A stretch of 64,000 nt of DNA, taken from Bacteroides sp. Lineage in GTDB: Bacteria > Bacteroidota > Bacteroidia > Bacteroidales > Bacteroidaceae. Shown here piece by piece: positions 18,099-33,018 of the stretch. Position numbers and translations under genes: made by a program. The stretch lies in assembly GCA_022648295.1 (NCBI GenBank), contig JALCME010000003.1, positions 124,001-188,000 of the forward strand. Direction: 5' to 3'. Every line of letters begins with the position of its first letter. The first letter of the stretch is position 1. The notes beneath the pieces are model-generated. The model did not search any database. It saw only the letters and a program-made list of their open reading frames with translations, and was not told the origin of the DNA.

Positions 18099-19139
18099 AT
18101 GAAAAAAACTTTGATGTTAACTGAGTACATGACTTCGGTAATGGAAGCTCTGCGCCGGTCAGAACAATATAGTACGGCCCATGTGTATTCCAGTGTCATT
18201 CATTCTGTCTCCGCTTATGCGGGTCGTGACTTCCCTTTGTCGGGACTAACTCCTGTTTTCTTAAAAGATTACGAGGACTACCTGATTTTGCAGAAAGGGC
18301 TTTCGTGGAATACCTCCTCTACGTATATGCGTTGTTTGCAATCGGTATATAACCGTGCCCTTCGGTCTCAGGAGGTTCCCTTTATTGCGCAATTGTTTAA
18401 AGGTGTTTTTACGGGGGTGAAGCGTAATCACCGCCGTGCTCTAAGAGTGGAAGACATGCGTCGTCTACTCTGTGAGTCTCCTGTACAGGTAGAGTGTTCA
18501 TCTTCTAAGGATTTGGAACCACCGGTTTCCTCAGAGAAGGGTACGAATACCCATAAGGCGCGTACCTGCATGGAACTGATGATCCGTTTACAAGGGATGT
18601 GTTTTGTAGATCTGGCCTTTCTTCGCAAGTCCGATCTAAAAAATGGCTATTTAATGCTTCGCCGTCATAAGACACGTATGCCTCTCTGCATCCGTATAAC
18701 GGATGAAATACGCCGCTTGGCTTCTTTTTATAAAAGCAATGATTCTTCTTCTCCCTATTTGCTAAATATCCTTGATGGTCATCTTCGTGGCTATGCGGCT
18801 TACCGAGATTACCAGTGTAAACTACGTCGTTTCAATGCCGCGCTGAAATGTTTGGCTCGCGAACGGCATGTATGTGTAAGTGTTAGTACTTATTGTGCCC
18901 GTCACACGTGGGCTACCCAAGCAAAGTATTGCGGCATTCCTACAGCCGTGATCTCTGAAGGTTTGGGGCATGCTTCAGTGACAACTACGGAGGCTTATCT
19001 GAAGAGTTTTGAAAATGGCGTTCTTGACCGTGCCAATGCCCAGGTCACCGCTTATATTTTTAATGGGAAGATGAGGAAACGACGATGTGCCGAAAAGACT
19101 GGTTCCCATCCTGTTGTTAATAAATTACTTTGCAGGTAA
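18099..19139 (+). CDS. Tyrosine recombinase, probable DNA invertase of the fimbrial promoter
   Basis: A 346-aa phage-integrase-type recombinase. An N-terminal SAM-like core-binding domain (residues about 1-110) precedes the catalytic domain. Catalytic candidates are Arg in LMIRLQGMCFVDLAFL, Lys in LRRHKTRMPL, ARHTWA with His and Arg, LGHASVTTTEAYL with His, and Tyr in EAYLKSF. This is the Bacteroidetes type that often sits beside invertible promoters of surface loci. Its last codons overlap a 20-bp inverted repeat (19125-19144) whose partner lies at 19413-19432, so inversion keeps the stop codon. The gene points toward the fimbrial operon. Target assignment is inferred from position. Confidence 0.9.
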   Translation: MKKTLMLTEYMTSVMEALRRSEQYSTAHVYSSVIHSVSAYAGRDFPLSGLTPVFLKDYEDYLILQKGLSWNTSSTYMRCLQSVYNRALRSQEVPFIAQLFKGVFTGVKRNHRRALRVEDMRRLLCESPVQVECSSSKDLEPPVSSEKGTNTHKARTCMELMIRLQGMCFVDLAFLRKSDLKNGYLMLRRHKTRMPLCIRITDEIRRLASFYKSNDSSSPYLLNILDGHLRGYAAYRDYQCKLRRFNAALKCLARERHVCVSVSTYCARHTWATQAKYCGIPTAVISEGLGHASVTTTEAYLKSFENGVLDRANAQVTAYIFNGKMRKRRCAEKTGSHPVVNKLLCR

Positions 19140-19144
19140 CGGAT
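19125..19144 (+). repeat. Left inverted repeat (IRL) of the invertible segment
   Basis: TTACTTTGCAGGTAACGGAT, the exact reverse complement of 19413-19432. It contains the recombinase stop codon (TAA in CAGGTAAC). A 7-bp core TTTGCAG is flanked by TTAC and GTAACGGAT. The outer arm is degenerate because it is coding. Confidence 0.9.
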
Positions 19145-19155
19145 GGTTTCCGGTG

Positions 19156-19187
19156 CAATGATAGCTAATATCCAATAAATAAGCAAA
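19156..19187 (-). promoter_or_regulatory. Leftward promoter inside the invertible segment
   Basis: On the minus strand: TTTG, a 20-nt spacer, then TATCATTG, one mismatch from TAnnTTTG. It starts 11 nt inside IRL. No equally good rightward promoter is visible in the segment or between IRR and the first fimbrial gene; TATTATTG near 19506 has no -33 partner. Confidence 0.6.
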
Positions 19188-19300
19188 TAAAAACCTTAAT
19201 AATTTGAAGTAATACTCTATATTTTTCATATTATTCCAATTTGTCTCTTTCAAAAGGCTTGAATAAGCACTTTCCGTTTCATACGGGACAAATGATTTTC

Positions 19301-19337
19301 TTTCCCGTTCATATGTCTGAACGGGAAATGTCTTTTT
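19301..19337 (+). terminator. Hairpin terminator inside the invertible segment
   Basis: TTTCCCGTTCA (19301-19311) pairs with TGAACGGGAAA (19318-19328) over a 6-nt loop, followed by TGTCTTTTTATT. As oriented it would stop readthrough from the recombinase gene into the fimbrial operon. Confidence 0.75.
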
Positions 19338-19412
19338 ATTCTCCTTATATATAATAAAATATTATCTAAATAATTCAGTTTAATGAAAACGGAATGTATT
19401 TAAATTGTATCT

Positions 19413-19432
19413 ATCCGTTACCTGCAAAGTAA
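19413..19432 (-). repeat. Right inverted repeat (IRR), centred in a larger palindrome
   Basis: ATCCGTTACCTGCAAAGTAA, partner of IRL. Here the 7-bp core CTGCAAA (19421-19427) is flanked by perfect 14-bp arms, TATCTATCCGTTAC and GTAACGGATAGATA, the geometry expected for two recombinase monomers on a tyrosine-recombinase core site. Downstream, 19433-19567 is an A+T-rich leader with no gene. Confidence 0.9.
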
Positions 19433-19567
19433 CGGATAGATATCATTTATTATAAATGTAAATATAGTTACAAATAGGTAAATCAAAATATGTTTATTTT
19501 CGTGTATTATTGCAATTCTGGAGCATAAACATACAAATTGATGATAGGAATAAAACGATATGATATA

Positions 19568-20161
19568 ATGAGCGTTCTGCGGTTTTCTGCTCTTTTTCGG
19601 TTGGCGATGCTTTTCATCCTGCTTTCCGGTTCGGTTGAAATTAACGGCCAATCCCTTGCAGTGAAGAGTGATTTATTATCTGATGCTTTGCTTTCACCGA
19701 ATGTGAGTATGGAACCGTTACTGTCTGCACATTGGAGTATGGAAGTGGGCATTCATTACCAGCCGTTTTCCTTAGATAGCCGTCGCCGGTGGAAACATTG
19801 GATGGGAAGAATTGAATTCCGCCATTGGTCGTGCAGTCCGTATTCCGGATTTTATTACGGCTTCCATACACTTGGTGGCCAGTTCAATGTGGGTGATGTT
19901 CATCTTCCCTTCGGTCTATATCGTGGTGTACGCAACTTCCGTTACGAAGGTTGGGTCTGGGGTGGGGGATTATCTGTGGGGTACCAGTGGATTCTTTCTC
20001 CCCGTTGGGGAGTGGAAGGTAGTTTCGGTGGCGGTCTTGTTTTTGCGGATTACTCCCGTTATCGTTGTGGTCATTGTGGTGAGCGTATGACTTCAAGCTG
20101 GCACAAAACTTACTTGGGGCCTACGCGTGCGGCCATTTCGCTGGTATATCTGCTTAAATAA
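19568..20161 (+). CDS. DUF3575-like outer-membrane protein, first gene of fimbrial operon
   Basis: A 197-aa protein with a signal peptide (MSVLRFSALFRLAMLFILLSGSVEINGQ) and a beta-rich body with alternating aromatic strands (YYGFHTLGGQFNVGD; WGGGLSVGYQWILSPRWGVEGSFGGGL), as in DUF3575 proteins of Bacteroidales fimbrial clusters. It is likely a small outer-membrane barrel. An upstream in-frame ATG at 19541 would add nine residues; I prefer 19568 because it gives a compact signal peptide. It lies 135 bp after IRR, so it would be the first gene read from a flipped promoter. The exact role in pilus assembly is unknown. Confidence 0.8.
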   Translation: MSVLRFSALFRLAMLFILLSGSVEINGQSLAVKSDLLSDALLSPNVSMEPLLSAHWSMEVGIHYQPFSLDSRRRWKHWMGRIEFRHWSCSPYSGFYYGFHTLGGQFNVGDVHLPFGLYRGVRNFRYEGWVWGGGLSVGYQWILSPRWGVEGSFGGGLVFADYSRYRCGHCGERMTSSWHKTYLGPTRAAISLVYLLK

Positions 20162-20226: not shown

Positions 20227-21186
20227 ATGAATTTAAATTGGAAGATAATGGGTATACTGGGTTTGTGCCTGCTGCTGCCTTCTTTGATGCATGGTCAGAG
20301 CGCTTACCGCGGACGCCTTTTGCTGGATAGTCTGAACTTTTCGGTATCCGGTGGCAAGTTGGAGGTGGGTATGGAAGTGAATTATGAAGGCCTTGACCTG
20401 TCTTCAGATGAATATTTAACGTTGACCCCCCTTCTGATTTCTGGTGTGGAACGTCTTAGACTCCCTTCCATTCTGCTTAATGGCCGTACGCGTCAGAAAG
20501 TGTATGAACGTTCCCGTTTACTGGGACGGGCTGTTGGCACTGCCCCATCGGTTGTGGTGAGGGATGGTGTACGTGGCAACCGTCATTTCCGATATTCGGT
20601 TTCCGTTCCTTTCCGGGAGTGGATGAGTGGTAGCACACTGTTTTTCCGTACTGAGGAATGCGGTTGCAACGGTTCTCCGGCAAGTATTTATACAGACAGT
20701 ATCGCTTCGGATGTGCTGCTTCCTTCGATTAGGGTAAAGGGGTTGGAGAAAGATGTGGATGTTCGCTGTCTGTCATGGGTTGAATTTATTCCTGCTCCTT
20801 TGGATAGTGCCGTCCTTGTTGCCCCGGCCTGTCCAAGTAGTGGTGTCACACTTGGTGGTCTGTTCTCACTGGCTTATTGCTACCGTCCCGGTTCGGGGGA
20901 GTTTAATTCCATTTACCTGCTTGCTGCACGTCTTTTCCCTGATAATGCGGAAGCTGCAATTAATGCTGCTGCCGTTGCATTAATCAAGCGAGACACACGT
21001 ACGGCCCGTCATTACCTGTCACGTTTCTCTACGCTTCCAGAGGCTTTCAATAACATGGGTGTGCTCTGTATGCTCGAGGGCAACCGTGAGAAGGCTGAGG
21101 TATATTTGGAGATGGCTGTTTCCCGTGGGGTGAAACGTGCATCCGCCGTTCTTACCGAACTCCGCAACGGGCGTCTGATGCATTAA
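20227..21186 (+). CDS. DUF3868-like exported protein with TPR-like C terminus
   Basis: A 319-aa protein with a signal peptide ending near MHGQS. The N-terminal about 180 residues (RGRLLLDSLNFSVSGGKLEVGMEVNYEGLDL ... RHFRYSVSVPF) resemble DUF3868, a domain found beside DUF3575 in fimbrial clusters. The C-terminal part (DNAEAAINAAAVALIKRDTRTARHYLSRF ... AFNNMGVLCMLEGNREKAEVYLEMAVSRG) reads as two tetratricopeptide-like helix pairs, suggesting protein contact in the periplasm. It is 65 bp after the previous gene and 20 bp before the next, so cotranscribed. An assembly role is inferred from context. Confidence 0.8.
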   Translation: MNLNWKIMGILGLCLLLPSLMHGQSAYRGRLLLDSLNFSVSGGKLEVGMEVNYEGLDLSSDEYLTLTPLLISGVERLRLPSILLNGRTRQKVYERSRLLGRAVGTAPSVVVRDGVRGNRHFRYSVSVPFREWMSGSTLFFRTEECGCNGSPASIYTDSIASDVLLPSIRVKGLEKDVDVRCLSWVEFIPAPLDSAVLVAPACPSSGVTLGGLFSLAYCYRPGSGEFNSIYLLAARLFPDNAEAAINAAAVALIKRDTRTARHYLSRFSTLPEAFNNMGVLCMLEGNREKAEVYLEMAVSRGVKRASAVLTELRNGRLMH

Positions 21187-21206: not shown

Positions 21207-22478
21207 ATGATGATGACTAATTCTATATTCCAACCTGGAGGTTGCGAGGCCCAGTCTCGTTTTCCTTCCCGTCCGGTCCGCTTGTCCGGTGTGCGGAAGA
21301 AAGGCGTCCGTTCGCTGAAAGTGCTGCTTTTCTGTCTGTTGACTTGGCTTTATGCCATATTGTTTGCTGTTCTTGTTTCATCCTGTTCAGATGAATCCGG
21401 TTCGGGTTCGGGCTCTTCCTCCTCTCGTTTGTTTCTTCATGTCGGTGGTGTCCCCACGCGTTCCATGGGAAGTAGTCTTCCCTCTGACGAAGGTACTATC
21501 GGTCGACTGGTTGTGGGTTTGTTCTATGCAGACGGCTCGGTGAATACCATTGTAGAGCCTACACTGTCTTTCGGTTCTGACGGTACGATTGAAACAGGGA
21601 GCATTCTTTGTTCTCCGGGTAATTGCGATGTGATTCTTGTAGCGAATGCTCCGGAAGGCATTTTCTCTGGTGTTCGTACAAAAAACGAGTTTATCGGGAA
21701 AACCCTTGCGCTGACTTCCACGGCAAGTGACGGTGTGCAGTCTTCGGACCATCTTCCGATGTCCGGCATCAGTGATTCTCCGATTCATCTGGAAGCCGGT
21801 GCTTCCGTGTCGGCTATGGTTCATTTATCACGTCTGGTAGCCCGTATCTCCATCTCCAGTATTCGTACGGCTTTTTCTTTGGATAATGCCAATGCCACAT
21901 TCACCCTGGACCGTATTTTCCTGTGCAATGCGCTTGAATCCTCCAAAGTGGCTCCTGGCGATGTGGGTGAGACGATGCCGGACAGCCCGACGTGGCTTCA
22001 CGGCGGACTGACCGAGGAGCAGCCGGACGGCAGCTACCTCTGGACCGCTGGGGCAGGTTTCCTGCTAAACGATGTGACTCCCGAAGGCGGTGTCCAAATC
22101 ACTTCGGATGCTTATACGGTACCTTACTGGTTCTACGCTTTTGCCAATAACAATACGACCTACCGTACGAAGCTGGTTCTTTCGGGGTATTTCGATCCGG
22201 ATGGTTCCGTAGGGAGTTCTCCTGCTGTCTATGTGTATTATCCCATTGTGGTAAACCAGGCCCAGACAGGTACAACTATCACCCCTTCGGATGCTTCCCA
22301 AACGGACCACGTGGGTGACGGCACGATTGCGCGCAACCATGATTACCGGATTAAGGCGGTGATCAAGGGTGACGGTGAAACCAATCCGGGCAGTGAGATT
22401 CATCCTTCAAATCTTGACTTGACGGTTGAAGTGGACGACTGGACCCTTCAGATCGTTCAGGAAGTGGAATTGGATTAG
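21207..22478 (+). CDS. FimA/Mfa1-type fimbrial subunit lipoprotein
   Basis: A 423-aa fimbrillin-superfamily protein. A lipobox (VLVSSC) follows a hydrophobic segment, with Cys near residue 60; the stretch before it is unusually long for a lipoprotein signal, so the true start may be internal, although no better ATG is obvious. The body has the FimA-like pattern: a Ser/Gly linker, then RLVVGLFYADGSVN and CDVILVANAP, and a RLVARISISSI strand. Such subunits are exported as lipoproteins, trimmed by an Arg-specific protease and polymerised by strand exchange. It could instead be the anchor-type (Mfa2) subunit. Confidence 0.8.
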   Translation: MMMTNSIFQPGGCEAQSRFPSRPVRLSGVRKKGVRSLKVLLFCLLTWLYAILFAVLVSSCSDESGSGSGSSSSRLFLHVGGVPTRSMGSSLPSDEGTIGRLVVGLFYADGSVNTIVEPTLSFGSDGTIETGSILCSPGNCDVILVANAPEGIFSGVRTKNEFIGKTLALTSTASDGVQSSDHLPMSGISDSPIHLEAGASVSAMVHLSRLVARISISSIRTAFSLDNANATFTLDRIFLCNALESSKVAPGDVGETMPDSPTWLHGGLTEEQPDGSYLWTAGAGFLLNDVTPEGGVQITSDAYTVPYWFYAFANNNTTYRTKLVLSGYFDPDGSVGSSPAVYVYYPIVVNQAQTGTTITPSDASQTDHVGDGTIARNHDYRIKAVIKGDGETNPGSEIHPSNLDLTVEVDDWTLQIVQEVELD

Positions 22479-22737: not shown

Positions 22738-24315
22738 ATGAAAGAAAAGAGAAGAATGAATGCCGGAAGAACTCATATCAGATTGTGCCACCTGTGGCTT
22801 CCGCTTATGTTGTTGCTGGTGTCGTTTCCCATGCATGGCATGGCTCATCCGGCAGATACACTTTACCGTGATTCGGTTTATCGTCAAGTTATTCTTGAGG
22901 GACGTTCACGCATGAACTGTTATTTCTCTTATCCTTCGGGTGGGAGTAAAATTCTGCAGGACTACGGAAATAATTCCGCTGAATTGTACAAGCTTGACGG
23001 TTTTATCCGCTCTGCAATAGAAGATACGCTGGTTTGTGTGCGTCAGGTTGTTCTGACGGGTTACAGTTCCATTGAAGGGAGCTACGATTTAAACCGCCGC
23101 CTCTCTCGTGATCGCGCCTTCGGCCTGAAAACCTGGCTTGACTTTCGTTACGGTCTTTCCCGGCGGTATGCGGTGGAGGTTTCCTATTTCGGAGAAGACT
23201 GGGGTAAACTTCGTGAACTGGTAGCAGGTTCCGATCTGGATGAGAAAACGGAAGTGCTGATGATCATCGATGAAGTTGATTTGTTCAAGGGGCGTGAGAA
23301 ACGGCTGATGGACCTGAATGTGGGTATCCCTTATCACCGTATGGAAAAGGATTTCTTCCCCTTACTCCGGCGTGTTGAAATCACGGTTGATTACGACCTT
23401 CGTCGTATCATTGAGCATCGTTACCGTCGCAAAGTGAGTACTTCCGAATTTGCGGAGCTGCTTGCCCGTGAACGTGCCGCTGTGGCCCGTGAGGAATCCC
23501 GTCTGGATTCGTTGCGTGAGGTCCGTGCAGCTCTTTCCCGGCATATCCGTGAAGAACAGGTTCGTGCCCGCGAGGATAGCCTGTTATGGGTTTCGCGTGC
23601 AAAGGAACGCAGGGTGGAAGTACAATCGGAGGGGATGGAACAAAACAAAACTGGAAATAAATATGAGCATGAATATAAAAAAGCAACTAAAAAGGCTGAG
23701 GCCGAAAAGACATATGAGGAAGATAAACGGATAGTGAAAAAGGAGGGGAAACGTCCGTTTATAGCCCTGAAAAGCAACCTGCTTCTTTGGGGTGGTGTCT
23801 CCCCATCGGCGGATTGTCGGAGTGTTGAACGCACCACCTTTATGCCGAACCTTTCGGCGGAGCTGTTCTTTTTCCGCCGTTGGTCGTTGTGTGTGAGCGG
23901 CATGTATGCGGACTGGGATTATGAGGGTGGAAAGCAGCATCTTGGTGTTTCTGGCTACCGTACCGAAGGCCGCTTCTGGCTAACGGACGGCTGGGGTTAC
24001 CGCTGGTTTTTTCTGGGCGTTTACGCGCAGGCCGGCGATTTTGACCTGCTGAGTACCGCCGCTTCGCTTGTTTCAGCGGGTGAAAACCACTGTACTGGGA
24101 CTTATGTTGAAGGCGGTCTTTCAACGGGCTGTTATTTTCCGCTGGGTTCCCGTCTGGGCATAGAGGTTGGTGCCCGCGGGGGTTGGCGTCGCAGTGCGGG
24201 CAAAGCCTATGATGTGGAGGGTGATGAGCGTTATTTTAACCATTCGGTGAAAAAGTCGCGTATGGGGCTGACCGGTCTGGTCATCAGTCTGAGTTACCGT
24301 TTCGGGAGAAAATAA
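22738..24315 (+). CDS. OmpA-like/DUF3575 outer-membrane protein of the fimbrial operon
   Basis: A 525-aa protein with four visible parts: a signal peptide (ending near GMAHPADT); a peptidoglycan-binding OmpA-like domain (VLTGYSSIEGSYDLNRRLSRDRAFGLKTWL); a long charged coiled-coil-like section (about residues 220-335, rich in E/R/K: FAELLARERAAVAREESRLDSLREV); and a C-terminal DUF3575 barrel (PFIALKSNLLLWGGVSPSADC ... LVISLSYRFGRK). It could tie the pilus base to the cell wall while the barrel sits in the outer membrane. Signal peptide start at 22738 or 22756 (MNAGR) are both possible. Confidence 0.82.
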   Translation: MKEKRRMNAGRTHIRLCHLWLPLMLLLVSFPMHGMAHPADTLYRDSVYRQVILEGRSRMNCYFSYPSGGSKILQDYGNNSAELYKLDGFIRSAIEDTLVCVRQVVLTGYSSIEGSYDLNRRLSRDRAFGLKTWLDFRYGLSRRYAVEVSYFGEDWGKLRELVAGSDLDEKTEVLMIIDEVDLFKGREKRLMDLNVGIPYHRMEKDFFPLLRRVEITVDYDLRRIIEHRYRRKVSTSEFAELLARERAAVAREESRLDSLREVRAALSRHIREEQVRAREDSLLWVSRAKERRVEVQSEGMEQNKTGNKYEHEYKKATKKAEAEKTYEEDKRIVKKEGKRPFIALKSNLLLWGGVSPSADCRSVERTTFMPNLSAELFFFRRWSLCVSGMYADWDYEGGKQHLGVSGYRTEGRFWLTDGWGYRWFFLGVYAQAGDFDLLSTAASLVSAGENHCTGTYVEGGLSTGCYFPLGSRLGIEVGARGGWRRSAGKAYDVEGDERYFNHSVKKSRMGLTGLVISLSYRFGRK

Positions 24316-24358
24316 GGATAAATAAAGCGTAGGAATTGAAGTGAATGAAACAGAAGCA

Positions 24359-25267
24359 ATGAAAGCGAAGAAAATGATGATACTAACTGCGATAAGCGTG
24401 GCGGGATCCCTAGGCGGTTGCACGGAGGTTTCGCTGGGCTATCCCTCCGATGAGGGACTGGTCCGGATTATTCCCGACTGGAGCGAGCTTTCGGTTCCCG
24501 GTTCTGCCTCCTGCATCTTCTTTCGCAGTGGAGAGTTCTCCACTTCCTACGCGTATGGGGATGTTTCTCCCGTTTCTTTTTCCGTTCCGCTCCCCTCAGG
24601 GACCTATCGTATGCTGGCCTATAACAGCGATGCTTCGGGGGTGACTTTCTCGTCTTTGCGTGATGCGGATTCTGCACGTGTCTCTCTGGGTTCGACCGCT
24701 CAACCGGGTGAGGTTTATGTATGGTCTGGTAAGGGGCTGAGTGTGCTTGCGGGTGATACGGTTGAGGTGAATACGGTTCCCCGGAGTCTGGTAAAAACGT
24801 TGACGCTTCATTTCCAACTGACCGGTCTGGAAGGTTCGGGGAGTCTGGAAGGCCTGTTGTCGGGTGTTTATCCTTCGCTGCTGCTTTTTACGGGCGAGCC
24901 TCCTGCTTCGGCCGTATCTGCGGCTCCGCAGACGGTTGTAGCTTTCAGTGCGGAGCTGAGTTCGGAAACGAAAGGCAGCTCTCAACTATCCGGCAGTTCT
25001 TCCGTCCGGCTGTTCGGCCTGCTTGACCCGGATAACGGCAGTTCCTATGACAACCGCCTGAAGCTGGCCCTGCGTGATTCGAGTGGAAGCAGCCGTTCTG
25101 CGGAAGTGGGTCTGAGTGGTGTTCTGACGGAGATCTTGGCCGCCTGTTCGGGTGAATTGACAGTTGAAGTTCCTGTTGAAATTTCCATTGATTTGCAATG
25201 GACGGATTCAGCTCTGGTGGCTTCGGTGAAAGCGTGGAGTCTGGGTGAAGGTAGCGGAAAAGTATAG
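24359..25267 (+). CDS. DUF5119-like lipoprotein of the fimbrial operon
   Basis: A 302-aa lipoprotein (SLGGC lipobox near residue 20) with a beta-rich body: VRIIPDWSEL, SCIFFRSGEFSTSYAYGD, LPSGTYRMLAYNSDASGVTF. This order (pseudo-numeric 'D-W' strand, then a 'G-Y-R-hLAYN' strand) is typical of DUF5119 proteins that sit upstream of fimbrillins. The body is rich in Ser/Gly/Leu. An upstream GTG at 24341 also lies in frame. Function is not established; probably a minor pilus subunit or anchor. Confidence 0.75.
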   Translation: MKAKKMMILTAISVAGSLGGCTEVSLGYPSDEGLVRIIPDWSELSVPGSASCIFFRSGEFSTSYAYGDVSPVSFSVPLPSGTYRMLAYNSDASGVTFSSLRDADSARVSLGSTAQPGEVYVWSGKGLSVLAGDTVEVNTVPRSLVKTLTLHFQLTGLEGSGSLEGLLSGVYPSLLLFTGEPPASAVSAAPQTVVAFSAELSSETKGSSQLSGSSSVRLFGLLDPDNGSSYDNRLKLALRDSSGSSRSAEVGLSGVLTEILAACSGELTVEVPVEISIDLQWTDSALVASVKAWSLGEGSGKV

Positions 25268-25334: not shown

Positions 25335-26336
25335 ATGAAATTTAAATTACAACTGATTGGTCTAATGTTGACGGTTCTCCCGCTCCTGTGCTGCACAGAG
25401 CGTGGAGACCTGTCTTCTTCGGGATTGATCCGTCTGGGTGCTTCCCGTGAAGGCTATACCCGGAGTTCGGTGAACGACCTTGCGGGCCTTTCGGCCGTTG
25501 GAGACCGTGTGGGTATCTACGGGGTGGTGACCGCGAACAGTGATGCTCTTTCTTCCGCGTTGACGGATGAGTGGAATGTGACCCCGCTGATGGATAATGT
25601 TTGCACCACCTCCATCAATGCCTCTACGGGTGTGCTCTCCTGGAGTGATGCCTATGCCTATCCGCTGGAAGAGGGTCAATACGTTAAATTCTGTGTGTAC
25701 CACCCTTATGCTTCCCCAGGTACGTCAGGTGATAATTACGTGGAGTCCCGTACAGGCGCTTCCCCGCTTCTTCATTTCACGCTGAGCGGTGAAGAGGATG
25801 TGATGTGGGCCTCTCCGGTGCTTGGTTCCCGTACGCAGTCCCCCGATGGTTTGGTTTTTAGCCATGTGTTGACCCAGCTCCGTTTCTGTCTGGTGGATGA
25901 TGAAGGCAATTTTGCAGGGACGAGTCTGACCGCCCTTCGCTTCAACAGGGTGAATACCACCTGTTCACTTAATCTGGAAACAAGTGAGCTGGGTAGCTGG
26001 GGTACACTTTCGGATGCGGTGTCGTTTCCCCTTTCGGAATCTTTTGCTGACGGGACTTCTTCGGTTCCCATCTCCGGGACAAGTACTTCCCCGCTGTCCT
26101 TATCGGGTTCTGTGATGCTCCAGCCGGGACTATCTTCTTTCAGCCTGAGGGTTGAAACCGATAACAAAGGCAGTTTTTCGAATGTGACGATCACCCCTTC
26201 GGGTGGTGAGGGCACTTTTGCTGCGGGTCATTCCTACCTGGTGAGGCTGACCTTCCGTGAGCGTACGCCCGTTGCCCTTGCCGCTACGGTCACCCCGTGG
26301 GTGATGGACGGCACGGGTGAAGGTACGGTGCAATAG
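25335..26336 (+). CDS. Fimbrillin-family lipoprotein (1 of 3 tandem)
   Basis: A 333-aa Mfa-like fimbrillin. Lipobox LLCC; N-terminal domain with RSSVNDLAGLSAVGDRVGIYGVV; conserved EEGQYVKFCVYHPYAS, EEDVMWASPV and FSHVLTQLRFCLVDD blocks; the end LVRLTFRERTPVALAATVTPWV is the usual C-terminal strand plus 'T-x-W' motif. Probably a minor or major pilin polymerised by donor-strand exchange. It shares the same block order with the next two genes, which suggests duplication. Confidence 0.88.
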   Translation: MKFKLQLIGLMLTVLPLLCCTERGDLSSSGLIRLGASREGYTRSSVNDLAGLSAVGDRVGIYGVVTANSDALSSALTDEWNVTPLMDNVCTTSINASTGVLSWSDAYAYPLEEGQYVKFCVYHPYASPGTSGDNYVESRTGASPLLHFTLSGEEDVMWASPVLGSRTQSPDGLVFSHVLTQLRFCLVDDEGNFAGTSLTALRFNRVNTTCSLNLETSELGSWGTLSDAVSFPLSESFADGTSSVPISGTSTSPLSLSGSVMLQPGLSSFSLRVETDNKGSFSNVTITPSGGEGTFAAGHSYLVRLTFRERTPVALAATVTPWVMDGTGEGTVQ

Positions 26337-26438: not shown

Positions 26439-27470
26439 ATGAAAAGAATTGTATTATCGGTGCTTGTCCTGACAGGATTGTGGGGCTGCACGCAGAGCGA
26501 ACTTGTTTCGCATGAAGAAGAAAATGTGGAAATACGTCTGAGATCCACGGCCCTTTCCGTGGAGTCGGTGACCAAAAGCGCTACCCGTTCCGCCTTTGAG
26601 GGCGGCATCAGTAGTGGCAATACGCTGACCGCCCGTGTACTGGCTTCCAGTGCAACCGGAAATTATACTTCCACTTATTTATCCGCGGACGGAACGATGA
26701 CTTTTAATGATGACGGCCTTACCCAGGTTGGTTTTAATACCACTCCGCAGTATTATCCGGTGAACAATGCCAATGTTTATTTTTGCGGGTTGTATCCCTC
26801 TACCGGTTGGGATGCAGATCAGACCATCACAGCCAGCTTTACTTTTCATGGAAACGAGGATGTGATGTCCGCCGCACAAGTTTCGTCAAAGAAGGATGAA
26901 GCCAAGGGAGGTACATTTAAGACACTGAATTTCAATCACCTGCTTACGCAGCTGGTTATTAGTGTGGTTGCGGAGAATGATGCTGCGATCACCGCTTGGG
27001 GCAATCTTCAGACCCTCAATTTGTCCAAGGCCGGTGGAGATAATCCGAATTCGGCGGTGAAAGTGACCTTGTCTAGCGGCGCGGTGGCTGAGAATGGCTT
27101 TTCAAGTCCCCTCAGCGATAACTCTTTTAAATTCTGGGTATGCAATCCCGGTCCCGCATCGGAAACGGCTTTTAGCGGTCAGAGCAAAGCTTTGACAACG
27201 ACGGCTACCGTGGTGGCTTATTCGATGGTTTGTCCGATAGCAGCGGATGGGGCGGATGATTACACCCTTTTGGTGACCACAGCCAATTCCGGCGGTGCGG
27301 TAACCGTACCGGTCAACCTGAAGGCTACAGCCGGTGGTGCAGCCTATTCGGGGAATACGCAGGGGCGGAAGTTTGTAGTGACCCTGACATTTAAGTCCAC
27401 CGAAATCCAGGCGCTCGGTTCGGTGACGGACTGGGTGAACGATGGGGGAGGCAGTGAAGTGATTCAGTAA
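26439..27470 (+). CDS. Fimbrillin-family lipoprotein (2 of 3 tandem)
   Basis: A 343-aa fimbrillin with signal and lipobox (TGLWGC). It has the family blocks YPVNNANVYFCGLYPSTGWD, GNEDVMSAAQVSSKKDEAKGGTFKTLNFNHLLTQLVISVVAEN and the C-terminal KFVVTLTFKSTEIQALGSVTDWV. It aligns more closely by eye with the following gene than with the previous one (the FNHLLTQ block). A 102-bp gap before it is the largest in the operon; no strong internal promoter was seen. Confidence 0.88.
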   Translation: MKRIVLSVLVLTGLWGCTQSELVSHEEENVEIRLRSTALSVESVTKSATRSAFEGGISSGNTLTARVLASSATGNYTSTYLSADGTMTFNDDGLTQVGFNTTPQYYPVNNANVYFCGLYPSTGWDADQTITASFTFHGNEDVMSAAQVSSKKDEAKGGTFKTLNFNHLLTQLVISVVAENDAAITAWGNLQTLNLSKAGGDNPNSAVKVTLSSGAVAENGFSSPLSDNSFKFWVCNPGPASETAFSGQSKALTTTATVVAYSMVCPIAADGADDYTLLVTTANSGGAVTVPVNLKATAGGAAYSGNTQGRKFVVTLTFKSTEIQALGSVTDWVNDGGGSEVIQ

Positions 27471-27504: not shown

Positions 27505-28596
27505 ATGAAAGAGAAAAAGTATATCCGGTCTCTGACCGGTAAGGTAAGTCGTTGCAGCGTTCTTTGGGGGACGATGCTATGCCTGTTCCTGCTTCCCTCC
27601 GGTTGTTTATCGGATGAAAGCGGCAATGGTTCGGATAATGATTTGGTTGAGATCCGTCTGAATGGCGGGATCAGTTCGTCCACATCGGTTTCGACGCGTG
27701 GTGATGGAATGTTCAATGGTACGGATACCTGGCCGGACGATCTGGCAGTGCGTTTTGCGCGTGCGGACAAGGCTACGGATTACACTGCGGGCTATTTGAG
27801 TACTCCCCTGGATGCAGTTGTTAACAAAACGGCTACTGGTGATGTCACCAAAACCCATGTCATTACCTTTGGAATGGCCCTGAATCCCTCTCCGGCCTAT
27901 TATCTGGCCAATGGGAATAAGAGTAAGCTGATCGGGTGGTATCCGTCTACGGGGACCTTTGATCCAAGTGCCCATACGGTCGCTTTTCCGGCTGCAACCC
28001 TTGACGGTTCCACCGACCTGATGGCTACGGACTTGTACGAAGGAGACAAAAACGCCAAAATCACCTCTGTTGCTTTCAATCACCTGCTGACGCAGATCAG
28101 TGTCAGGGTTTATACGGAAAGTACAACTACGTCCACAGTGTGGGGTACGCTGAGCTCCGTTGCGATTGTGGGAATGAGCCGGTCGTGCATCGTAACCCTT
28201 CCGGCAGCTACCGCAGCAACTACAGGCGGTACGGAAAAAGTGACGGCGGCCTTTTCCGGTTCAGATAACCTTTCCCTGGTGGAAAAAAATCCTTCGGGCA
28301 ACTCGGATATCAGTTATCCCGTAACTCCGGGCATTGGTGCCGGTAATTCCGTGCTGGCCGGTTATGCGATGTTTGCTCCACAGACAGACAGTGATAATAC
28401 AAATAATAAAATTACGCTAACGGTGATCACCTCGGCGGGTGGAACCCATACGGCCGCCATTCCTGCTCCCGACGGCGGTTTCAAGGCCGGATCTTCGTAT
28501 GTGGTGACGCTGAAGTTCGGTGCAGCCGAAATAGAGCCGTCGGTGAGTATCACGGACTGGCAACCGGGAACAACTCCCGGGGAAGTGGAAATATAA
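27505..28596 (+). CDS. Fimbrillin-family lipoprotein (3 of 3 tandem)
   Basis: A 363-aa fimbrillin with lipobox LLPSGC. Blocks: SPAYYLANGNKSKLIGWYPSTGTFD, GSTDLMATDLYEGDKNAKITSVAFNHLLTQISVRVYTES, and the end YVVTLKFGAAEIEPSVSITDWQPG. It is a clear paralogue of the preceding gene. Tandem fimbrillins with divergent surface loops are usual in Bacteroidales pili. The next ATG follows after 13 bp. Confidence 0.88.
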   Translation: MKEKKYIRSLTGKVSRCSVLWGTMLCLFLLPSGCLSDESGNGSDNDLVEIRLNGGISSSTSVSTRGDGMFNGTDTWPDDLAVRFARADKATDYTAGYLSTPLDAVVNKTATGDVTKTHVITFGMALNPSPAYYLANGNKSKLIGWYPSTGTFDPSAHTVAFPAATLDGSTDLMATDLYEGDKNAKITSVAFNHLLTQISVRVYTESTTTSTVWGTLSSVAIVGMSRSCIVTLPAATAATTGGTEKVTAAFSGSDNLSLVEKNPSGNSDISYPVTPGIGAGNSVLAGYAMFAPQTDSDNTNNKITLTVITSAGGTHTAAIPAPDGGFKAGSSYVVTLKFGAAEIEPSVSITDWQPGTTPGEVEI

Positions 28597-28609: not shown

Positions 28610-29860
28610 ATGCGGAAACAGGGAATAAACCATATACTACTTATAAACCGGCTCATCGTCGCATTGGTGCTGCTATCTGGTTGCCGGGGCGGGGATGATC
28701 CTTCCCTCACGGCCCCCTTCGCGGTGTCCTTCACGGCTGTGGGGGTGGGTGTGACGGTTTCCACGCGTAGTGAAACCTCTCCGCTTCCCTCCGGCACCAC
28801 ACTCCGTATCCTTGCTTTCCGACGTACAGGCGCCGCGGCTGATCTTTCCGCGGATGAATATAGGGGTGAAGGCACCTATGAAGTTCCTTCGGATGAGGGT
28901 GGCGGTATTTTGAGAGCTGTCAGTCCGCTGTTGCTTTCGGCAGGAACCTATGATTTCTATGCGCTGACCCCCGCTCTGGCGGTTACCCGTGGAAGTAACG
29001 GGGCAGGCAACACTTATGCCGTGCAGGTTGAAAATGGGACGGACTACGCCACATCGCTGACAGAGTCTGTAACGGTGAGTGCAACGTCGCCTTCGGTGAA
29101 TCTGGACGCACTGATGCGTCGTTGTACGAAAGTGACCTTCGCTCTTTCTCCCAAGGGGGATAACATCACGGCGGTAAATATTTCTTCTGCCGGGATAACG
29201 AACATGACGGATGCTCCGGTGACGGGCGGGCTGAACGAAGCGCTGAATGTCTCCGGCCTTTCCAAAACCACGGAGGTGAGTGTGAGTGATTTCACCGCTC
29301 CGGACAGCAGCCAGCCCCTGGTGCAGGAATCCTCCACAGTGGTATTGCCCCGTGAGGCGGGTGCTTTCAGCTTTAAGATGGTGGTGGAATACGATAACAG
29401 CGGTAAAACCACGGAGCTTTCCGCTTCGCTTCCCGCTGATCTGGCCTTTTCAGCAGATACGCACTATACCTTTACGGTGAAGATGCGCGGCGAGCGTGCC
29501 GACCTGGTACTGAGTGTCTCTCCGTGGATTGATTCGACAGATTTCAGTACCGATATGGGTGGTCCGGATGTGATTGAGATCGTGATAGGTGGCTGGACGG
29601 ATGTGTACTGGGACAGTAGCAATACGGATACCGGTGGTGGTAATAGTGTATTGGTTGTTTCGGGTTGGGAGGCCAATCCGGCATGGAATGATGAGTTCGG
29701 CCGTTATCCCGGTCTGGGTGTGGTTTGTACGACCTGGCAGGATGTGCTCTGGACCAGCCATTCGGGTACGGGTGGGGGAAACGCCGGTTTGGTTCCTGAT
29801 AACTGGAATACGACACATACCACCGATGGAACAAACGGTGGATCTTTGGGCGGGGAATAA
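28610..29860 (+). CDS. Fimbrillin-like lipoprotein with C-terminal Trp/TGGGN repeats
   Basis: A 416-aa lipoprotein (LLSGC). The fimbrillin-like body (TLRILAFRRTG, GTYDFYALTPALAV, RCTKVTFALSP, HYTFTVKMRGERADLVLSVSPWI) ends near residue 310. About 95 residues follow with two imperfect repeats: GGWTDVYWDSSNTDTGGGNS and TWQDVLWTSHSGTGGGNA, each a Trp-Asp-Val-x-Trp unit with a TGGGN turn, plus SGWEANPAW / PDNWNTTH. Such a tail is not part of the usual fimbrillin fold and may be a binding or junction module near the tip. Confidence 0.78.
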   Translation: MRKQGINHILLINRLIVALVLLSGCRGGDDPSLTAPFAVSFTAVGVGVTVSTRSETSPLPSGTTLRILAFRRTGAAADLSADEYRGEGTYEVPSDEGGGILRAVSPLLLSAGTYDFYALTPALAVTRGSNGAGNTYAVQVENGTDYATSLTESVTVSATSPSVNLDALMRRCTKVTFALSPKGDNITAVNISSAGITNMTDAPVTGGLNEALNVSGLSKTTEVSVSDFTAPDSSQPLVQESSTVVLPREAGAFSFKMVVEYDNSGKTTELSASLPADLAFSADTHYTFTVKMRGERADLVLSVSPWIDSTDFSTDMGGPDVIEIVIGGWTDVYWDSSNTDTGGGNSVLVVSGWEANPAWNDEFGRYPGLGVVCTTWQDVLWTSHSGTGGGNAGLVPDNWNTTHTTDGTNGGSLGGE

Positions 29861-29899: not shown

Positions 29900-32314
29900 A
29901 TGATACGAATAACGAAAATAGGAACTGTGCTTGTTTTAGCTTTTTTATTTTGCTCTTCCTGTGCTGACAATTCAATTGATTCTGTGAATGGCACTCCTGG
30001 AATTCAGGGAAAAACAGTCAGGCTGATGCTTTCTTCTTCCTCTCTCCAAGTATCAGGTGGTACAAGCCGTTCTGTGGGAGAAGGAATGAATGTCTCGTTA
30101 GGCTCCACCGAGGCGAGTGCAACCCGTGCAGTAACAGAAGACAAAATAGACAATGTTTGTGTATTTCAATTTGCCGGAAGTGCGGAATCCAGTACCGCTG
30201 TTCTGAAAAGTAAAACTTATGTGAGTGATCTTATTGACCGCACGTTGGATGTTTCACTGATCTCTTCCACGACATGTTTTCTTTACGTTTGTGCCAATGT
30301 GGGAGATATTACGAATGATTACACGGTGGACAGTTCCACTTATCAGGACTTGATGAATGCTTCGCTTTCCGTTTCCAGTCAGGCGGATTTCAGCAGTCTG
30401 CTACCTATGTGCGGGGCCTCGGCTACGCTGAATTTGACCACCATGACCGGTAATATTGATGTGAGCCTGACCCGTCTGGTCGCAAAGGTCTCTTTTACCT
30501 GTAATTTGAGCTCCCTGCCTACAGGTGCTACCTTCAGTATTACCAATGCTACTTTGCGCAATGTTCCGAAGTCGGTTTCTTATGTGGCTCCCGCTACGGG
30601 TACACTGACCTCAACCACGACAGTGGATTCTTATATTGGCACGGGTGCTATAGTAAATGAAACGGCTGCGACCACCACTTACGTGTGGTACATGCCTGAG
30701 AATCTTCGTGGAACAGGGACGTCCATCAGTTCCTGGACGGAACGGATTTCAAAGAATGCCCCTGCTTATTCCACTTACATTGAGTTGACCGGCAATTATA
30801 CCCCTGTCAGTGGAGGTGAAACTTATGAAGCAACTTATGTAATTTATCTGGGTAATGCAACGGATATGAATAATTATGATGTGGTGCGTAACCATTCTTA
30901 TGCGGTGACTGCTACAATTAAAGGTATTAATTTGGCAGATGAGCGCGTTACTACGGATACTAATTTAAGTGCCGGTGGTTTATCAAACTGCTATCTGGCT
31001 TCAACTTCGAACCACTGGTACCGTTTTACGGGTACGACCCGTGGTAATGGGAACACAACGGATTATACTTCCACTTATACAGGTATTAGTATTATGCCTT
31101 CCGTAGTGACTGATGCTTCGGATGCGGTGACTATTCCGGCAGCGCAGATTGCAGATGCGGTGATTGTGTGGGAAACGTCCGATGGGTTGGTCAGTCAGGT
31201 GCAATGGGATTCCGAATCGGGTTGTGTAAAATTCAAGACGGGTGATACTACGGCAGGCAATGCGGTGATTGCCGTACGAAATTCCAGTGGTACCATTTTG
31301 TGGAGCTGGCATATCTGGCGTACAACCTTTGATTTGGCAGGCCTGAACGAAAATCATGTGTTACAAATTAAAACGAATACGAATTATTCATGGTACGGGA
31401 CTTTGGTTGGTGATGCAGCCATGAAAGAGCGTAAATTAGTGATGATGGACCGCAATTTAGGCGCTTCCGGTACGGACTGGGCTACCAATAAAGGGGTAAA
31501 TTGCCTTCATTACCAGTTTGGCCGTAAAGACCCGCTACCCGGAGGAGGTACGGTTGAAGGAAGTGGTGAAGTAAACGGGGATATTACACTCTACGGTTAC
31601 GGTTCAGGTACTTCAAACGGGCAGTTTACCATTGTCGGTAAAGCGAAAAGTACAACAACCCTGCAAAGTGAATCTTGCACTACAGCTCAGAAAACGGTTG
31701 ATTACACGATTCAGCATCCTGAGGCCTTTATTTATAGTAATATAACTTCCGGTACTTATACCCGGGATAATACGGGTTATAGCTGGATATATACAGCGAC
31801 GCTGACTTCGCCGGATTGGGAAATCTCCAATTGCCTTTGGGGGGATAATAATCTGGCTAACGGTGGTGTGAATGCCGGCTACCTGGATCCCGTTCCGTGG
31901 GACGGGAATAAAACGATATATGATCCCTGTCCCGCAGGTTGGCGTGTTGCTCCGGCTGATGCCTTTACCGGAGTGACACACGATATTACCAACGGACGAA
32001 GTGGTAATAGCGATCAAGGATGGATAAATATAGCCCCTGCCAATATTTATAATACCGGTTGGTCTACGGGTTGGGCTTTCCGTTTCGGAAGCGAATCCAC
32101 GGATACCAGTACCTTCTCTCCGGCGTCCGGCTCTCGCGACGCGGGCAGTGGTACGTTGTGCAACGTTGGTGTCTACGGTTACGATTGGCTTTCTTCGTCC
32201 GGAGGTGCCACGAGTTTGAACGGGAGCAGCTTAGGCTTCACTTCGAGCATCGTGCGCGTTGCGTACGAGAGCTACCGTGCGCACGGCTTCCCCGTGCGTT
32301 GCGTCCAAGAATAA
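29900..32314 (+). CDS. DUF4906-like tip lipoprotein with DGR-type variable C terminus
   Basis: An 804-aa lipoprotein (FCSSC lipobox), the last and largest gene of the operon, the usual place of tip adhesins. The N-terminal half is fimbrillin/DUF4906-like (KIDNVCVFQFAG; LTRLVAKVSFTCNLSSLPTGATFSITNATLRNVPKSVSYV; TYEATYVIYLG). The C-terminal about 300 residues form a FISUMP/C-type-lectin-like domain (LVMMDRNLGASG ... DPCPAGWRVAPADAF). The final 64 codons (FSPASGSR ... CNVGVYGYDWLSSSGG ... RAHGFPVRCVQE) have the shape of a diversity-generating-retroelement variable repeat. A hairpin with a GAGA tetraloop follows the stop. Likely a surface receptor-binding protein with a diversified ligand face. 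Confidence 0.85.
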   Translation: MIRITKIGTVLVLAFLFCSSCADNSIDSVNGTPGIQGKTVRLMLSSSSLQVSGGTSRSVGEGMNVSLGSTEASATRAVTEDKIDNVCVFQFAGSAESSTAVLKSKTYVSDLIDRTLDVSLISSTTCFLYVCANVGDITNDYTVDSSTYQDLMNASLSVSSQADFSSLLPMCGASATLNLTTMTGNIDVSLTRLVAKVSFTCNLSSLPTGATFSITNATLRNVPKSVSYVAPATGTLTSTTTVDSYIGTGAIVNETAATTTYVWYMPENLRGTGTSISSWTERISKNAPAYSTYIELTGNYTPVSGGETYEATYVIYLGNATDMNNYDVVRNHSYAVTATIKGINLADERVTTDTNLSAGGLSNCYLASTSNHWYRFTGTTRGNGNTTDYTSTYTGISIMPSVVTDASDAVTIPAAQIADAVIVWETSDGLVSQVQWDSESGCVKFKTGDTTAGNAVIAVRNSSGTILWSWHIWRTTFDLAGLNENHVLQIKTNTNYSWYGTLVGDAAMKERKLVMMDRNLGASGTDWATNKGVNCLHYQFGRKDPLPGGGTVEGSGEVNGDITLYGYGSGTSNGQFTIVGKAKSTTTLQSESCTTAQKTVDYTIQHPEAFIYSNITSGTYTRDNTGYSWIYTATLTSPDWEISNCLWGDNNLANGGVNAGYLDPVPWDGNKTIYDPCPAGWRVAPADAFTGVTHDITNGRSGNSDQGWINIAPANIYNTGWSTGWAFRFGSESTDTSTFSPASGSRDAGSGTLCNVGVYGYDWLSSSGGATSLNGSSLGFTSSIVRVAYESYRAHGFPVRCVQE
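32120..32311 (+). other. DGR variable-repeat-like region (VR), 192 bp
   Basis: The last 64 sense codons of the tip lipoprotein align without gaps to a second 192-bp copy at 32611-32802. Where that copy has AAC codons (11), this region has GAC, GCG, AAC, TAC, AAC, GGC, ACT, CGC, TAC, TAC and CAC. Changed residues sit at the positions that form the ligand face in C-type-lectin VR proteins, while NVG, GY, WLS and GFPVRCVQ-like framework residues are kept. Confidence 0.8.
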
Positions 32315-32316
32315 CC

Positions 32317-32334
32317 GCGGCACGAGAGTGTCGC
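32317..32334 (+). other. Stem-loop just downstream of VR (DGR-type hairpin)
   Basis: GCGGCAC-GAGA-GTGTCGC: a 7-bp stem with one G-T pair and a GRNA-type tetraloop, starting 5 bp after the VR end. A hairpin with a GRNA loop immediately after VR is a known cis element of DGR retrohoming targets in Bordetella phage. The template-like copy lacks one, as expected. Confidence 0.65.
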
Positions 32335-32610
32335 TTATTCGATTTTTGATTTTTATTGCTTGGGGCTTTAAAGCCATGATTTCCAGTTATTTATCGAGAG
32401 TACCGCAGGCCCTGCTGCTTGCGGTAGGGTGATAAGTAAATTCAGCAATCCACTGGCGGTGTAAAGACGTATAGGACTACACGTGGTACGATAACTATTT
32501 CGTACACGTCCCGAATTACGTATCCGCTAGTTGTCCATACCAGTTTGTACGGACGTTGGGGAGGTCTTCTTTTCTTCCGTCGGCACATTCATTTTCAGTG
32601 ATTGCTTTTT
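32335..32610 (+). other. Gene-free region between VR and TR with several hairpins
   Basis: No credible gene. Visible stems are TACCGCA/TGCGGTA around 32400-32426, and ACGTG-TACGA / TCGTA-CACGT around 32476-32510 with one bulged base. A TGA at 32599-32601 closes the frame of the downstream repeat. It may encode the 5' part of a DGR-type RNA or be remnant sequence. Confidence 0.45.
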
Positions 32611-32802
32611 CCGGCCTCCGGTTTGCGCAACAACTCGAATGGTGCGTTAAGCAACGTAGGCTCCAACGGTTACGGTTGGCTGTCTGCTCCCGGGGGTGAC
32701 TCGAGTGTGAACGGGGTCTACCTCAACTTCAACACGGGCAATGTGAACGTTGCAAACGAGACCAACCGTGCGAACGGCATGTTTGTGCGCTGCGTCCAAG
32801 AA
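32611..32802 (+). repeat. Template-repeat-like (TR) copy of the variable region
   Basis: A 192-bp AAC-rich copy (11 AAC and 2 AAT codons among 64 if read in the VR frame: LRNNSNGALSNVGSNGYGW ... FNTGNVNVANETNRANGM). It has no start codon or ribosome site, and a stop lies just upstream, so it is not a protein gene. AAC in variable positions is the hallmark of DGR templates. About 34 differences from VR at non-adenine bases show it is not the immediate template of the adjacent VR. Confidence 0.7.
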
Positions 32803-32952
32803 CTTACGTACTGGAACATTTTTTATAAATTTTTCGAAAAACCGGAAGAGTAACGGGATGCTTACTTGGTATATTTTTCCCCGCTTTTCCGGCCATGACT
32901 GCGTCGGATGCCGATGTGATATCGTTCTCCGGAGCATAATTTGTTTGTTTGT

Positions 32953-32989
32953 AAGGTTCCTCTCAGGCGTGGGAGGAACCTTCTTTTTG
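32953..32989 (+). terminator. Strong terminator downstream of the TR-like region
   Basis: AAGGTTCCTC (32953-32962) pairs with GAGGAACCTT (32973-32982), followed by CTTTTTG. It would end a transcript containing TR and a 150-nt spacer (32803-32952), a layout resembling DGR template RNAs. Confidence 0.85.
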
Positions 32990-33018
32990 AGACTAAACTT
33001 TAAATTAATATATATGAT

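What the first reader, a model, noticed from the sequence alone, without database searches (positions are those of the whole stretch)
32120..32311. Diversity-generating-retroelement variable repeat at the end of a fimbrial tip protein
The last 64 codons of the 804-aa operon-terminal lipoprotein have the FISUMP/C-type-lectin VR layout. They align gaplessly to a nearby AAC-rich copy, and 9 of the 11 AAC codons of that copy are changed here. By hand count about 22 of 42 adenines differ against about 34 of 150 other bases. A hypervariable domain on a phase-variable pilus would combine two diversity systems on one adhesin.
Basis: partly seen in the sequence, partly recalled or inferred. Interest (0 to 1): 0.88.

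Follow-up and report, generated by a model that had tools for sequence, protein, structure and literature searches.

The report
Disarmed mutator of a pilus tip
The last 64 codons of a predicted pilus-tip protein in a bacterium, probably a Bacteroides, carry adenine-biased changes of the kind that a diversity-generating retroelement makes, but searches of the assembled genome found only a stump of the required reverse transcriptase, so this built-in mutator has likely been lost and the adhesin is likely frozen.

Summary
VR 32119-32311 aligns without gaps to a copy at 32610-32802; 22 of 42 copy adenines differ against 34 of 151 other bases, and 9 of 11 AAC codons are changed. The copy is very likely a template repeat (TR): AAC-rich, with one-directional mismatches, and abutted 5' by an RT-7 RNA (Rfam RF03028, 32394-32612, above the curated score). 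RT-7 also abuts the TR in 5 of 11 clean TR/VR pairs of relatives. The protein is a predicted type V pilus tip with a probably lectin-like end, behind an apparent invertible promoter.

Two working diversity systems are not supported. Searches of the 92%-complete assembly found no intact retroelement reverse transcriptase, only a stump beside a sister pilus gene. The MutS-like frame after the TR has 58 codons. The TR misfits this VR at 23% of non-adenine sites, against 9 of 1,199 in eleven clean pairs. Database copies of the protein differ outside the VR, not in it. Best reading: a real VR left by a retroelement that has likely lost its enzyme; an enzyme in the missing 8% stays possible. RT-less leftover targets are known from Treponema denticola; the RT-7/TR module and its arrays are the newer part.

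The parts
32119..32311 (+). Variable repeat (VR), last 64 codons of the tip gene
   Evidence: gap-free repeat with adenine-biased, one-directional mismatches
32610..32802 (+). Template repeat (TR): AAC-rich copy; does not fit the present VR at 34 of 151 non-A sites
   Evidence: its translation matches the VR of P0025 at 46/51 non-Asn but 2/13 Asn positions
32394..32612 (+). RT-7 RNA (RF03028), structured leader abutting the 5' end of the TR
   Evidence: 121.8 bits, gathering score 116.8, E 3.9e-28 over the window; covariation of its first hairpin
32317..32334 (+). Hairpin just after the VR stop codon, GCGGCAC[GAGA]GTGTCGC, like the target-site hairpin of DGRs
   Evidence: loop fits GRNA of PMC3240598; same arms, other loop, after the VRs of sister cassettes C16 and C13
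33019..33195 (+). 58-aa ORF resembling the start of a MutS-like DGR accessory protein
   Evidence: 45% identical over 55 aa to the start of an ORF near the DGR of L053 (tblastn against the session's loci, E 2e-12)
29900..32314 (+). Tip gene, 804 aa, predicted type V pilus tip with DUF4906 and a Fib_succ_major-like (sub-threshold) C-terminus
28610..29860 (+). Fimbrillin-like subunit (Mfa_like_2)
27505..28596 (+). Operon gene without a Pfam match, between fimbrillin-like genes
26439..27470 (+). Fimbrillin-like subunit (Mfa_like_1)
25335..26336 (+). Fimbrillin-like subunit (Mfa_like_1)
24341..25267 (+). DUF5119 protein of the pilus operon
22738..24315 (+). DUF3575 protein of the pilus operon
21207..22478 (+). 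FimA-like pilin
20227..21186 (+). DUF3868 protein of the pilus operon
19538..20161 (+). DUF3575 protein, first gene after the inverted repeat
19125..19432 (.). Apparent invertible promoter segment: 20-bp perfect inverted repeat (19125-19144 / 19413-19432)
18099..19139 (+). Tyrosine recombinase next to the inverted repeat

Best explanation
Window 32119-32311 is the variable repeat of a predicted type V pilus tip adhesin that was likely written by a diversity-generating retroelement (DGR) whose reverse transcriptase has likely been lost, leaving next to it one likely template unit (RT-7 RNA leader plus AAC-rich TR, 32394-32802) that is unlikely to be the template of the present repeat. When the DGR worked, error-prone reverse transcription of an RT-7-led template RNA would have replaced adenines of AAC codons at random, and the cDNA would have overwritten the end of the gene upstream of the hairpin at 32317-32334 (inferred from the BPP-1 model). 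In this assembly the enzyme is reduced to a C-terminal stump in a sister cassette (C16), the MutS-like ORF after the TR is only 58 aa long, and the VRs are likely inherited as fixed variants. The apparent invertible promoter would still switch the pilus on and off (inferred).
For: Adenine bias and its asymmetry. RT-7 match above the curated score, abutting the TR. Of 39 RT-7 matches in 9 sources I measured the distance to an aligned TR for 15; all 15 lie within -4 to +18 nt, among them 5 of the 11 clean pairs (L053, L191, L194, L197, L203). TR translation matches the VR of P0025 at 46/51 framework but 2/13 Asn positions, against 33/51 for the window's own VR. RT: no RVT_1; DGR RT protein without its TR part and PHROG 1423 find only the C16 stump, which lies after a MutS-like gene. 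Eleven clean pairs have 9 of 1,199 non-A mismatches, the window 34 of 151. C16 and C13 differ in the 100 codons before the VR at 5-8% of bases per codon position, but in the VR at 35% of residues, 15 of 22 amino-acid changes being NNC to NNC, so a DGR did work in this lineage. Database copies of three tip proteins: 1, 1 and 0 substitutions outside the VR, none inside.
Against: The assembly is 92.4% complete, so an RT could lie in the missing part. The RT-7 leader is well preserved, which points to recent loss or to help from elsewhere. Misfit alone does not prove death: in Alistipes L042, which has an RT, the VR also misfits all eight TRs (best 22 of 148 non-A), and L046 is similar (21 of 151). 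The eleven clean pairs were picked because they are clean; 7 of the 18 loci compared gave none. Six of the eleven have no RT-7 match at E <= 0.001, and every RT-7 match outside the window is below the curated score (40.6-111.8 bits). The unchanged VRs rest on very few, closely related sequences.
Confidence: 0.68

Rival explanations
1. The DGR is alive but split: an RT and a better fitting TR lie in the unassembled 8% or on another replicon, and act on this VR in trans.
For: Completeness 92.4%. Well preserved RT-7 leader and TR. VR differences of DGR type between C16 and C13. Post-VR hairpin in three cassettes. Some genus genomes have two or three strong DGR RT matches, such as G072, G084, G029.
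Against: No intact RT, and no better template than the adjacent TR, found in the assembled part. RT is missing inside contigs at C16 and C13, which run on into shared downstream sequence. VR unchanged in database copies that differ elsewhere.
Confidence: 0.24
2. The misfit comes from module exchange: the RT-7/TR unit was imported from a cassette of the P0025 kind and never templated this VR. This can be true together with the best explanation.
For: TR framework closer to P0025 (46/51), P0018 (40/51) and P0006 (38/51) than to the own VR (33/51). Sister locus C5b lacks about 480 nt, with 85% similar sequence on the far side. Units are multiplied in Alistipes.
Against: Long divergence of a once matching pair could give the same picture; the source genome of P0025 was not among the 399 family genomes searched.
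Confidence: 0.35
3. No DGR: an ordinary duplication of a lectin-like domain, with bias by chance.
For: At least 15 ORFs of this genome end in a similar domain, 12 of them without a GC-rich hairpin within 50 nt.
Against: One-directional adenine bias, AAC codon use, RT-7 leader, MutS-like ORF, RT stump in a sister locus.
Confidence: 0.03

Closest known systems
DGR-diversified type V pilus tips of Bacteroides (Macadangdang et al. 2024/2025; not held, seen only as cited in passages of PMC12632263 and PMC12875486)
   Same: Tip pilin with a diversified C-terminal binding domain; phase-variable fimbriae in the same genus
   Different: Here no intact RT was found, the TR misfits the VR, and the accessory ORF is short
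Leftover DGR target genes in Treponema denticola isolates lacking RT and TR (PMC4891356, passages)
   Same: VRs with adenine-type changes persist without the RT; read there as leftovers of lost systems
   Different: Here one TR with a well preserved RT-7 leader stays behind, and sister cassettes show partial deletions
RT-7 RNA, Rfam RF03028
   Same: Sequence and structure above the curated score in the window
   Different: The Rfam row gives no role; here it is placed as the 5' leader of DGR template repeats
BPP-1 DGR of a Bordetella phage (PMC3240598, PMC12875486, passages)
   Same: Adenine-specific VR changes and a hairpin after the VR
   Different: In BPP-1 the structured spacer that recruits the enzyme lies 3' of the TR; here a structured RNA lies 5'

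Membership tests
Working DGR | DGR-type reverse transcriptase in the genome | tested here: not met
   only a C-terminal stump at C16 in a 92.4% complete assembly; 3 of 14 control genomes rang
Working DGR | TR/VR pair whose mismatches fall almost only at TR adenines | tested here: not met
   bias is real (22/42 against 34/151), but clean pairs have 9/1,199 non-A mismatches
DGR lineage (ancestry) | AAC-rich TR with one-directional adenine bias | tested here: met
DGR lineage (ancestry) | Hairpin just 3' of the VR | tested here: met
   6 of 7 stem positions are Watson-Crick, GAGA loop; modest alone (14/500 shuffles as good; DNA fold z -2.0)
DGR lineage (ancestry) | Accessory protein Avd or MutS-like protein | tested here: inconclusive
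   MutS-like ORF in the window and longer gene at C16 (below Pfam's cut-off); Avd not found, but the control rang nowhere
DGR lineage (ancestry) | C-type-lectin fold of the target domain | tested here: inconclusive
RT-7 RNA (RF03028) | Score at or above the curated cut-off | tested here: met
   121.8 against 116.8 bits
Type V pilus tip | Mfa3/FimA-type pilin fold plus extra C-terminal domain | tested here: met
Phase-variable promoter | Inverted repeat with recombinase and observed inversion | tested here: inconclusive
   repeat and recombinase present; inversion not observed, my promoter pattern did not match
Working DGR | Mutagenic homing in cells | not testable with these tools
   needs population reads or an assay

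The most novel reading that the evidence does not exclude
RT-7 RNA is the 5' leader of the template RNA in one subclass of DGRs, and RT-7 plus TR is a self-contained template module: it multiplies into long arrays next to pilus tips (8 units in Alistipes L042, 21 RT-7 matches in L044), moves between cassettes, and stays behind when the enzyme is gone, so that adhesin repertoires would evolve by swapping templates as well as by mutating adenines.
Probability: 0.55. Interest if true: 0.78.

Novelty: new variant of a known kind. Interest (0 to 1): 0.58.

Why it matters
It separates two questions that the VR layout alone cannot: whether a surface protein has been shaped by a DGR, and whether it still is. 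It gives a candidate role for RT-7, a curated RNA family, as the leader of DGR template RNA on the opposite side of the TR from the structured spacer of BPP-1. And it points to a genome where a mutator seems to have been switched off by deletion, which makes the cost and benefit of adhesin hypermutation testable.

Tried and rejected
Better template for the VR elsewhere in the assembly: the DNA search gave only the adjacent TR (73%) and the two C5 genes (72, 71%). Mosaic origin of the L042 VR from its eight TRs: the best two-template mosaic still leaves 17 non-A mismatches, and 8 positions fit no TR. TR DNA in 61 genomes, own included: no match outside the own genome. TR-leader motif across 158 genus genomes with 2 mismatches: 23 genomes, own included, mostly single scattered matches; only G084 showed three on the contig of an RT. 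P0025 in 399 family genomes: source not found. Whole-protein fold search did not reach the C-terminal domain, hence a separate model; Foldseek on that gave nothing significant. Bacteroides promoter pattern in the invertible segment: no match. In one search the RT query still contained a TR translation and hit VRs as well as C13:528-1049; with that part removed only C16 remained at E <= 1e-5. Papers: the 2024/2025 Bacteroides DGR paper, the RT-7 source paper and the 2018 DGR survey are not held. Searches for template arrays, Alistipes DGRs and RT-7 with DGRs turned up no description in the listings and passages seen; PMC6642488 reports a DGR with two TRs (passage). That is no proof of novelty.

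First count of the leader hairpin used a structure string one column off; one search is the right one.

Full report
Observation. The repeat is there as described. VR 32119-32311 and the copy 32610-32802 align over 193 nt without a gap. Copy adenines differ at 22 of 42, other bases at 34 of 151; 9 of 11 AAC codons are changed and 9 of 11 keep their last C. The bias runs one way only: read from the VR side, adenines differ at 8 of 28, like the rest. It survives shuffling within codon positions (p 0.0002). The copy writes Asn as AAC 11 and AAT 2, the tip gene as 11 and 41.

The copy is very likely a template repeat. The RT-7 RNA (RF03028) lies directly 5': window 32394-32612, 121.8 bits against a cut-off of 116.8. 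I scanned 19 sources for Rfam families, some only in part. RT-7 appears in 9: window, L042, L044, L053, L191, L193, L194, L197, L203. It does not appear at E <= 0.001 in the other 10: L131, L132, L005, L195, L196, L198, L200, L202, L204, L205. Only the window match reaches the curated score; the others have 40.6-111.8 bits (E 4e-6 or better). There are 39 matches in all: 21 in L044, 8 in L042, 3 in L193, 2 in L053, one in each of the rest. For the 15 with a TR aligned the gap between RT-7 and TR is -4 to +18 nt. The 24 in L044 and L193 were not measured; 10 of 13 L044 units printed show a TR-like peptide behind RT-7 and 3 were printed in another frame; in L193 two are followed by a repeat and one only by its end. 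The first hairpin of the leader, aligned over the window and 20 Alistipes units, pairs in 94.7% of cells, with changes on both sides in 9 of 9 pairs; none of 500 shuffles reached that, and slid versions fall to 15-51%. I drew that structure from these rows and many rows are related, so the counts lean in its favour. Translated, the TR matches the VR of protein P0025 at 46 of 51 non-Asn but 2 of 13 Asn positions, the pattern of template and product.

Sister cassettes. At least 15 ORFs in the stretches I fetched end in a similar domain. Two of them, on C16 and C13, look like DGR cassettes in ruins. C16 keeps the VR, a hairpin, a MutS-like gene (MutS_I, E 0.005, below Pfam's cut-off) and the last part of an RT (PHROG 1423, E 6.6e-9). 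C13 keeps the VR, the same hairpin, the first codons of the MutS-like gene and a scrap of repeat. Both then run on into shared sequence (74% over 468 columns), so the loss is inside the contigs. In the 100 codons before the VR they differ at 5-8% of bases per codon position (13% of residues; further upstream 38%), in the VR at 35% of residues; 15 of 22 amino-acid changes there are NNC to NNC. A DGR did work in this lineage.

Is it working now? RVT_1 finds no RT in the assembly. A DGR RT protein and PHROG 1423 find only the C16 stump once the TR part of the query is left out. In the genus, 20 of 148 genomes match that RT protein at E <= 1e-50. As a yardstick I compared repeats in 18 loci of my choice, 15 from the genus and 3 from Alistipes. 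Eleven gave a clean pair: 9 non-A mismatches in 1,199 (for L195, whose pair has gaps). Seven did not: L042, L046, L192, L193, L199, L201, L202. The window with 34 of 151 is unlike the clean pairs but resembles L042 (best 22 of 148) and L046 (21 of 151), where an RT is present; the misfit is therefore not proof of death. Two more facts point to a frozen VR. The database holds copies of the three tip proteins on contigs of other lengths than in this assembly (285,153 and 559,293 against 201,076 and 176,326), so from at least one further assembly; two differ by one residue outside the VR and none inside it, the third is identical. And the MutS-like ORF after the TR is only 58 aa long. Against this stand the 92.4% completeness and the good state of RT-7.

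Target site and switch. Right after the VR stop lies GCGGCAC[GAGA]GTGTCGC; the GRNA loop is the consensus that PMC3240598 gives for phage DGR targets (passages). C16 and C13 carry the same arms with loop GTA; the other 12 tips of this genome show no GC-rich hairpin within 50 nt. The window hairpin alone is modest (14 of 500 shuffles as good). In front of the operon lies a 20-bp perfect inverted repeat with 268 nt between its arms, next to a tyrosine recombinase; similar repeats lie at the pilus loci of C5, C16, C13 and C8.

Place among known things. DGRs that diversify type V pilus tips in Bacteroides are in print (cited in PMC12632263, passages; the paper itself is not held). Leftover targets without RT and TR are in print for Treponema denticola (PMC4891356, passages). 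What I did not find in my searches is RT-7 as the leader of the TR, or arrays of RT-7/TR units. In BPP-1 the structured spacer that recruits the enzyme lies 3' of the TR (PMC12875486, passages); here a structured RNA lies 5'. That RT-7 was first found near RT genes is recalled, not seen. MutS-like accessory proteins of DGRs and IGxxxSQ as a DGR RT mark are recalled; the MutS link was tested.

Noticed in passing
L042 13889-17437, L044 12266-23019, L046 13965-16102 (Alistipes MAGs): Arrays of RT-7/TR units near a tip gene: 8 in L042 (then an RT), 21 RT-7 matches in L044 (8 of them copies at an offset of 7,657 nt), 5 TR copies in L046. In L042 the units differ from the reference unit by 15-39%.
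   Followed up: partly
L193 9737-11234 (-) and L044 behind 12832: Some repeats behind an RT-7 leader have few AAC codons and look already mutated, as if template units were themselves targets or silent variant stores.
   Followed up: no
L042 12088-12273: The VR of an RT-bearing locus misfits all eight of its TRs (best 22 of 148 non-A) and 8 positions fit none; its template is unknown.
   Followed up: partly
window 19125-19432; L005 1829-2140; L131 2772-3282; L132 8077-8594; L136 7659-8169: Five pilus loci of the genome share nearly the same inverted-repeat arms (GTTACTT..CAGGTAACGGA), each with a tyrosine recombinase or a similar 334-aa ORF close by.
   Followed up: partly
window 32836-32981 and L005 downstream of 12508: 85% similar sequence follows both tip genes; the window has about 480 extra nt with hairpin, RT-7 and TR in between, so the template block is present or absent as a unit.
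   Followed up: partly
window 32898-32991: Weak, sub-threshold match to the Bacteroides sRNA BTnc201 (31.8 of 105 bits).
   Followed up: no
L133, L134, L135, L136: Ten further tip-like ORFs end in a similar domain without a GC-rich hairpin, so the domain alone does not mark a DGR target.
   Followed up: partly
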